A stretch of 47,379 nt of DNA, from the NCBI GenBank assembly GCA_009921625.1, contig RFXN01000002.1:1-47379 (forward strand), read 5' to 3'. Below are positions 4,989 to 7,100 of this stretch, piece after piece. The notes below the pieces were generated by a model. That model searched no databases. It saw only the letters and a list, made by a program, of their open reading frames with translations, and had not been told where the DNA came from. Source of the stretch: Candidatus Fonsibacter lacus (GTDB lineage: Bacteria; Actinomycetota; Actinomycetes; Nanopelagicales; Nanopelagicaceae). Position 1 is the first letter of the stretch, and each line of letters opens with the position of its first letter. A program made the translations under genes and the position numbers.

Positions 4989-7100
4989 CTTAAAACGACG
5001 TAAGCGCAACGAGTTTGCTACCACGATAAAGCTCGAGAGAGCCATCGCCCCTCCGGCGTACATGGGATTGAGATTGCCGGTGGCGGCAAGTGGAATACCG
5101 ATAATGTTGTAAATAAATGCCCAACCTAGATTTTCTTTGATGATTCGAAGAGTTCGGCGCGATAACCGGAGCGCATCTGCAGCAGCACTTAATGATGCTC
5201 TCATCAACGTAATATCTGCAACAGCAATTGCGCTATCAGTTCCAGTGCCCATCGCCATACTTAAGTTTGATGTAGCAAGCGCCGCCGCATCATTAACGCC
5301 ATCGCCAATCATGATGACATCGCGACCTTGCTCTTGAAATTCTTTAACTACTCCAACTTTTTCTTCTGGTAGAACCTCTGCACGAAATTGTTTGATTCCT
5401 GCAACGCTGGCAATATGAGCAGCAGCTTCCTTTGAATCACCAGTGAGCAATACGCTTTCATAACCAAGTTTTGATAGCTTCTCAATCGCCTGAGCAGAGT
5501 CATCTTTTATTTGGTCGCCAACTTCCAAGATTGCTCGAGCAGAACCATCTAATGAGATAACAATCGGCGAACGTCCGCGCGCTTTTATTGCTGTTATCGC
5601 ACCTAGCAACTCGGGAGAGTAACCAGCGGTTCCATATGCAATGGATTCGGGTGATCCAATAAGTGTGAGATAACTTCTTCCCGATATTTCTACTCTTCCA
5701 GCGACTCCCCGCCCTGGGTGCGACTCAAATTCTGAGATGAGACCAAAGCTCACGCCTTGGATTTTTGCCAAGGCAACCACTCCGCGCGCAATCGGGTGTT
5801 CGCTCTGGTTCTCGAGCGTTCCAGCGATGGAGAGAAGGAGTGACTCTTCAATTCCATACCTCTCAATTGCCACAACCTCTATGTGACCGGTAGTCACCGT
5901 GCCGGTTTTATCTAGCAAGAGGATTGGTTTTTCCTGATTATTCTTGCCCCTCTGAGCGCGCTCCAAAGCTGCGGGGGTGCGCATAATGATGCCCAGTTGC
6001 GCACCGCGCCCCGATCCGACAAGAAAAGCGATAGGCGTTGCTAACCCGAGAGCACAGGGGCAGGCGATGACAAGAAGCGTTATCGCAGGCGCGATGGATT
6101 GCGAGAGATCTCTCGTGATTGAGAGCCACACTGCACATGTCATGAGAGATGAAGCGATTATCGTGGGGACAAAGAGTGCAGCGATTCGATCCGCAAGTCG
6201 CGCTATCGGCGCCTTCTCGCCCTGTGCCTGCACCACCATTCGAGCGATACGGGATAGCTCTGTTTGAGCGCCTACCCGTTCAGCGCGAACTACTAAAGGT
6301 CCATTCTTATTAATTGTTGCGCCAATCACGCGCTTCCCTGGGCCACAGTGAACGGGGAGAGATTCTCCAGTCAACATAGAGAGATCGACATCCCCTTCAC
6401 CCTCAACAACCACACCGTCTGTTGCTATTGCCTCACCAGGTCGAACCAGGAAGAGATCGCCAACATTGAGATGGTCAATTGGGGCAAGCACCTCTTCGCC
6501 GTTGCGAAGAATCGAGACCTCTTTTGCACCCATATTAAGTAACGCTCGTAACGCAGCGGCGTAGCAAGACCAGATAAATGCCGAGAGTGTCCCAATGGAA
6601 ATCAAGGTATCCATGTTGGATCGGCGTAGTGAACGTAATCCAACGCGGTGTATTGGCCACCCTGCAATAAATACAACGGGAACGCTCAGCGCAATCGCCA
6701 ACCAACCCCATGGATGATTTGTTGGATGAAGAATCTTGAGTAAATCTAATATTTTGTAAATTGCATTATCGATTGGTTCATGCAAAGACATGACCATTGA
6801 GATAATAATTGTTGGGAGCGCAAAGAGCGTTGCGAGAATTAAGTGCCACTCCAACCGTGGCGATTCAAGTAATTGATTATTAGTAGCGTTTAGTAGCTCT
6901 GCACGGTAACCAGTATTTGATACTGCATTGATAACTGTTGGAATTTCAATGGTCTCTGGCGCAATTACATGCGCTGTCTCGGTAGCAAAATTTACCGTTG
7001 CGCTAACGCCAGGCAACTCATTTAATGCACCTTCTATTGTCGCAACACATGAACTACAACTCATGCCATGTAGTTTTAAATCGATGGTGCGAACATCCAT
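4986..7100 (-). CDS. copA: P1B-1 copper-exporting ATPase with an apparent missing transmembrane helix
   Basis: 704 residues. An N-terminal HMA domain carries GMSCSSC (Cys at ~15 and 18). Next come helices MA and MB, and a first core helix ending SAFIWSCYA. The CPC motif (LLVIACPCALGLATP) is near residue 345, DKTGTVTTG near 396, the SEHPIARG HP loop, and GDGVNDAAAL near 600. C-terminal YNIIGIP and MALSS are Cu(I)-site signatures. In relatives about 50 residues lie between the first core helix and AALRALLNMGAKEV, including the helix with YFEVAA...GRYFEARAK. Here SCYA is joined directly to AALRALL. The gene would normally export Cu(I); with one core helix gone the topology of the A-domain would be disturbed, so activity is doubtful. 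The start follows TAATGT by 6 nt. The stop TAG lies inside the tRNA 3' end. Confidence 0.85.
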   Translation of the reverse strand: MDVRTIDLKLHGMSCSSCVATIEGALNELPGVSATVNFATETAHVIAPETIEIPTVINAVSNTGYRAELLNATNNQLLESPRLEWHLILATLFALPTIIISMVMSLHEPIDNAIYKILDLLKILHPTNHPWGWLAIALSVPVVFIAGWPIHRVGLRSLRRSNMDTLISIGTLSAFIWSCYAAALRALLNMGAKEVSILRNGEEVLAPIDHLNVGDLFLVRPGEAIATDGVVVEGEGDVDLSMLTGESLPVHCGPGKRVIGATINKNGPLVVRAERVGAQTELSRIARMVVQAQGEKAPIARLADRIAALFVPTIIASSLMTCAVWLSITRDLSQSIAPAITLLVIACPCALGLATPIAFLVGSGRGAQLGIIMRTPAALERAQRGKNNQEKPILLLDKTGTVTTGHIEVVAIERYGIEESLLLSIAGTLENQSEHPIARGVVALAKIQGVSFGLISEFESHPGRGVAGRVEISGRSYLTLIGSPESIAYGTAGYSPELLGAITAIKARGRSPIVISLDGSARAILEVGDQIKDDSAQAIEKLSKLGYESVLLTGDSKEAAAHIASVAGIKQFRAEVLPEEKVGVVKEFQEQGRDVIMIGDGVNDAAALATSNLSMAMGTGTDSAIAVADITLMRASLSAAADALRLSRRTLRIIKENLGWAFIYNIIGIPLAATGNLNPMYAGGAMALSSFIVVANSLRLRRFK

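What the first reader, a model, noticed from the sequence alone, without database searches (positions are those of the whole stretch)
6540..6600. Copper ATPase lacks one core transmembrane helix by an in-frame gap
In CopA/CtpB-type pumps the first core helix (TLISIGTLxAxxWS) is followed by ~50 residues containing a second helix (YFEVAA...GRYFEARAK) before AALRALL. Here SCYA is fused directly to AALRALL, with no frameshift. All catalytic motifs remain. Losing one helix would put the actuator domain on the wrong side of the membrane, so either the pump is dead, has an unusual topology, or the sequence has a deletion artefact.
Basis: partly seen in the sequence, partly recalled or inferred. Interest (0 to 1): 0.6.

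Follow-up and report, generated by a model that had tools for sequence, protein, structure and literature searches.

The report
Copper pump gap is assembly artefact
The copper-pump gene really lacks one membrane helix in this assembled sequence, but the same draft genome lacks similar 30-200-base pieces in dozens of other genes, including essential ones, so this is almost certainly an assembly error and not unusual biology.

Summary
The gap is real in the assembled sequence. The CopA-type P1B ATPase at 4986-7100 (-) lacks exactly 35 codons (105 nt, not ~150) at a join near 6558/6559. The missing piece is core helix M2 and its cytosolic end, including the conserved copper-entry Glu. Every homologue checked keeps it (142 loci, overlapping fetches included), among them the syntenic genes of three congeners. 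The rest of the gene shows no decay (branch omega 0.048 against 0.047).

The deciding evidence is assembly-wide. In ~497 kb of readable sequence from the same draft genome, compared with a closed congener, 34 deletions of at least 30 nt lie inside otherwise conserved genes. Of these, 24 shift the frame; no frame-shifting insertion was found. They break DnaA, enolase, PcrA, PNPase (twice) and UppS; DnaA and enolase are whole in all four congeners, PNPase in three. A second such gap splits a glutamine-synthetase-like gene near 45602 of this window. A cell cannot lack all of these; frame-blind, deletion-only losses point to faulty joins. CopA's gap is best read as one that happened to be a multiple of three. 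Neither unusual topology nor a dead pump is needed. Raw reads were not available.

The parts
4986..7100 (-). copA-type P1B ATPase ORF, 704 aa, with a 35-codon in-frame gap
6555..6562 (-). Join where 105 nt (helix M2) are missing; about 6558/6559, a few nt uncertain
   Evidence: codon and nucleotide alignments with G001-G003
6555..6614 (-). Helix M1 (MDTLISIGTLSAFIWSCYA), with the entry-site Met retained
   Evidence: alignment and hydropathy
7047..7058 (-). CSSC of the N-terminal heavy-metal-associated domain
6360..6371 (-). TGES, actuator domain
6054..6062 (-). CPC copper-binding motif of M4
5898..5912 (-). DKTGT phosphorylation motif
5793..5804 (-). SEHP, nucleotide-binding domain
5277..5306 (-). 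GDGVNDAAAL hinge motif
45590..45610 (+). Second gap of the same kind in this window: 44 nt missing, frame-shifting, in a glutamine-synthetase-like gene

Best explanation
The gap is an artefact of this draft assembly. The organism almost certainly carries an ordinary eight-helix CopA-type copper-exporting ATPase, at the same place as in its congeners. At many points in the assembly two correct stretches have been joined with roughly 30-200 bases between them left out. One such join falls in copA and removes 105 nt, a multiple of three, so no frameshift marks it. Shown: the gap, its absence from all relatives examined, and the assembly-wide set of frame-blind, deletion-only gaps that hit essential genes. 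Inferred: that the copA gap has the same cause, and how the joins arose (gap closing, or scaffolds with unresolved bases dropped; not known which).
For: 34 deletions of at least 30 nt in 382 compared genes, 24 frame-shifting and 10 in frame, against 4 insertions, all in frame. Genes hit include DnaA, enolase, PcrA, PNPase (two), UppS, a PknB-type kinase and a Ppx-type phosphatase. DnaA and enolase are whole in G001-G004 and PNPase in G002-G004, yet all three are in pieces in this genome. A second case lies in this window at about 45602. CopA shows no decay and no relative lacks M2. No N gaps stand inside the readable contigs fetched.
Against: No reads could be examined, so this particular join is not directly proven false. 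The control from other congener assemblies is small (46 kb, 0 events where 2-3 would be expected), although the genus-wide searches support it. The exact assembly mechanism is unknown: no long repeat flanks the join. Some of the 10 in-frame deletions, the short ones above all, may be natural indels.
Confidence: 0.94

Rival explanations
1. A real, very recent in-frame deletion in this strain that inactivates the pump: the helix count before the actuator domain becomes odd, so the domain is misplaced or the protein is degraded.
For: The gap is clean and in frame. Copper ATPases are lost repeatedly in this family: 47 of 295 genomes have no match, incompleteness included. Human ATP7A without exon 10 (TM3 and TM4) shows no activity in yeast (PMC8097048). 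The lack of decay only demands that the deletion be young.
Against: It needs a separate cause for one gap among 34 like it in the same assembly. Neutral evolution for more than ~2.3% of the branch is rejected (interpolated).
Confidence: 0.045
2. A real and functional short form: a seven-helix copper ATPase with unusual topology, or translation from an internal start giving a PINA-like core of M3-M6.
For: All catalytic motifs and purifying selection are retained. The ATP7B splice form PINA, which lacks the first four TM helices, keeps weak copper transport in yeast (PMC3750203). The window has a Met codon just after the join where congeners have Leu.
Against: No homologue has this form. The conserved M2 Glu of the copper entry region is lost. 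The AlphaFold2 model is worst exactly at the join (pLDDT 28 for residues 181-190), while a full-length relative with the same alignment rows shows one continuous M2 helix. I saw no clear Shine-Dalgarno sequence before the internal Met. The assembly-wide artefact makes this reading unnecessary.
Confidence: 0.015

Closest known systems
P1B-1 Cu+-ATPases: AfCopA (PDB 3j09, 7r0g) and LpCopA (PDB 3rfu)
   Same: HMA domain with CxxC (as in AfCopA), MA, MB and M1, TGES, CPC, DKTGT, SEHP and GDGxND motifs; E-values of 1e-109 and 1e-117
   Different: The assembled sequence lacks M2 with its entry-region Glu (E205 of AfCopA by alignment)
CopA of congeners G001, G002 and G003
   Same: Syntenic orthologues, 72-78% identical with the gap counted (77-83% over the part after the gap)
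   Different: They have the 35 residues; the window does not
Human ATP7A without exon 10, and ATP7B PINA
   Same: Copper ATPases that lack N-terminal membrane helices
   Different: Splice forms. The exon 10 form loses two helices and is inactive (PMC8097048); PINA loses four and is weakly active (PMC3750203). Neither loses a single helix
Frame-shifting gaps in DnaA, enolase, PcrA and PNPase of the same assembly
   Same: Clean loss of 50-148 nt within a conserved gene, flanks intact
   Different: Those shift the frame; the copA gap does not, like those in UppS, Ppx and the second one in PNPase

Membership tests
P1B (heavy-metal) P-type ATPase, CopA type | Catalytic motifs TGES, DKTGT, SEHP, GDGxNDxxAL | tested here: met
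   TIGR01525 and TIGR01511 above their cut-offs
P1B (heavy-metal) P-type ATPase, CopA type | CPC in M4, YN in M5 and MxxSS in M6 (Cu+ specificity) | tested here: met
   CPC 347-349, YN 664, MALSS 686
P1B (heavy-metal) P-type ATPase, CopA type | Eight transmembrane helices with M2 before the actuator domain | tested here: not met
   M2 absent from the assembled sequence; very probably an artefact
P1B (heavy-metal) P-type ATPase, CopA type | Copper transport activity | not testable with these tools
   needs expression and assay
Assembly deletion artefact | Many similar gaps in the same assembly, without regard to reading frame | tested here: met
   34 deletions, 24 frame-shifting; 4 insertions, all in frame
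Assembly deletion artefact | Gaps also in genes the cell cannot do without, whole in relatives | tested here: met
   DnaA, enolase and PNPase compared across the genus; UppS and PcrA against G003
Assembly deletion artefact | Raw reads disagree with the join | not testable with these tools
   no reads held

The most novel reading that the evidence does not exclude
A copper ATPase that works with seven membrane helices, without M2, by an altered topology or a reduced M3-M6 core, kept under selection in one lineage.
Probability: 0.015. Interest if true: 0.75.

Novelty: not a real feature. Interest (0 to 1): 0.08.

Why it matters
As biology it probably does not. As a data-quality point it does: this draft genome stands for a species, and 34 deletions of at least 30 nt turned up in 382 genes compared with a closed congener. 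Gene-loss, pseudogene and protein-architecture claims drawn from it should be distrusted, above all in-frame gaps, which leave no frameshift as a warning.

Tried and rejected
(1) Pseudogene decay: a branch-specific omega test and conserved-site departures show none. (2) A second intact copy elsewhere in the assembly: none. (3) Short forms among relatives: three hits that seemed to span the gap (G055, G038, G041) were fetched, and all have an M2. (4) G004 as a natural loss of copA: its best match to the neighbouring gene is only a 36% relative, so the syntenic region was not found and nothing can be concluded. (5) Repeat-driven collapse: no long direct repeat at the join. (6) N-marked gaps: none inside the readable contigs fetched; the N runs seen are whole short contigs that are withheld. 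(7) A CsoR-type regulator as context: not found in the genus.

Full report
Observation. The ORF at 4986-7100 (-) encodes a 704-residue copper-type P1B ATPase. M1 (MDTLISIGTLSAFIWSCYA) runs directly into ALRALLNMGAKEV of the actuator-domain linker. Aligned with the genes of three congeners (G001, G002, G003), the gap is exactly 35 codons, 105 nt, in each comparison. The genes are syntenic in all three: UPF0182, copA, an inositol-phosphatase-like gene, rsgA, aroA (gene names from my reading of the translations). In G001 the missing residues are QAAATGEIYVEVAAGVMLFILFGRYLESRSKIKAG, that is helix M2 and its cytosolic end. Among 145 fetched loci that align to this region, 142 contain the segment (some are overlapping fetches of the same gene); the other three are the window itself. 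Three hits that looked gap-free in the listing also have an M2. No second copy was found in the assembly.

What would be lost. The lost Glu of RYLESRSK aligns with the LEARAK Glu of AfCopA. With the offset of 14 given by the entry Met (residue 144 in the PDB chain as I count it, M158 in the paper) it is E205, which PMC9433437 places in M2 as part of the copper entry region. The sequence as written would have MA, MB and M1 before the actuator domain, with a basic MB-M1 loop, so the domain would be expected on the wrong side (inference from the positive-inside rule). AlphaFold2 of the window protein is least confident exactly at the join (pLDDT 28 for residues 181-190), whereas a full-length relative with the same alignment rows gives one continuous helix there (residues 185-217). 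AlphaFold2 is not a test of what a deletion does, so this counts for little. The nearest studied analogue, ATP7A without exon 10 (TM3 and TM4), is inactive in yeast (PMC8097048); ATP7B PINA, without four helices, is weakly active (PMC3750203).

No decay. A four-taxon codon model gives omega 0.048 on the window's branch against 0.047 elsewhere. A model in which the last part of that branch is neutral loses 3.84 units of twice the log-likelihood once the neutral part reaches about 2.3% (interpolated: -3.24 at 2%, -5.17 at 3%). At the 94 columns invariant in the wider family and present in the window there are no departures. So the gene has been working almost to the present: the deletion is extremely recent, or harmless, or not real.

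The deciding test. I compared genes of the closed congener G003 (about 80% of its genome) with 559 kb of the window's own assembly (497 kb readable; the rest are short contigs withheld as N). Under fixed criteria, 34 deletions of at least 30 nt lie inside otherwise well-aligned genes; 24 shift the frame and 10 do not. The 4 insertions are all in frame. Genes hit include enolase (148 nt), DnaA (50), PcrA (113), PNPase (53 and 105), UppS (78), a Ppx-type phosphatase (138), a PknB-type kinase (160), a malic enzyme (110) and an ABC-F protein (89). The joins are clean and the flanks match. Genus-wide searches show DnaA and enolase unbroken in G001-G004 and PNPase unbroken in G002-G004 (in G001 only residues 1-547 were found, possibly at a contig end), while all three are in pieces in the window's genome. 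The same script on 46 kb of G001 and G002 finds none, though only 2-3 would be expected there. A second gap lies in this window: 44 nt missing near 45602 from a glutamine-synthetase-like gene.

Interpretation. A living cell cannot lack working DnaA, enolase, PNPase and UppS at once, and real deletions in conserved genes would not ignore the reading frame while frame-shifting insertions are absent. The common cause must lie in the sequence data or assembly. Counting the 28 events of at least 44 nt in about 383 kb of aligned coding sequence, a 2.1-kb gene has roughly a 14% chance of a gap, so a gap in copA needs no special explanation, and being in frame is the one-in-three case. How the joins arose (gap filling, dropped unresolved bases or another step) cannot be told without the reads.

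Verdict. Observation confirmed, with a corrected size.

Noticed in passing
window 44830-46186 (+): A glutamine-synthetase-like gene is split into two overlapping ORFs by a 44-nt gap near 45602; the closed congener G003 has it as one 467-aa ORF.
   Followed up: yes
own assembly, fetched contigs: L170 (C14), L248 (C36), L253 (C91), L256 (C113), L266, L268, L270 and others: 34 deletions of at least 30 nt in conserved genes, 24 frame-shifting, in about 497 kb: the assembly as a whole is unreliable for gene integrity.
   Followed up: yes
window 9152-10612 (-): The AroA-like protein carries a low-complexity Asn/Gly/Ser/Lys insert (NKNGKTNGSSSSNTGNKSGKNGGNQNGKSGAL) absent from G003; G002 has different low-complexity inserts in the same gene.
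   Followed up: partly
window 7188-8009 (-): The inositol-phosphatase-like protein varies in length among congeners: G003 has 30 and G002 has 13 residues more in a poorly conserved stretch, G001 none.
   Followed up: no
family-wide and genus: CopA is patchy in this family: 47 of 295 genomes have no match, none of the four g6 genomes and few g8 genomes among those listed having one. No CsoR-type regulator was found in the window's genus.
   Followed up: no
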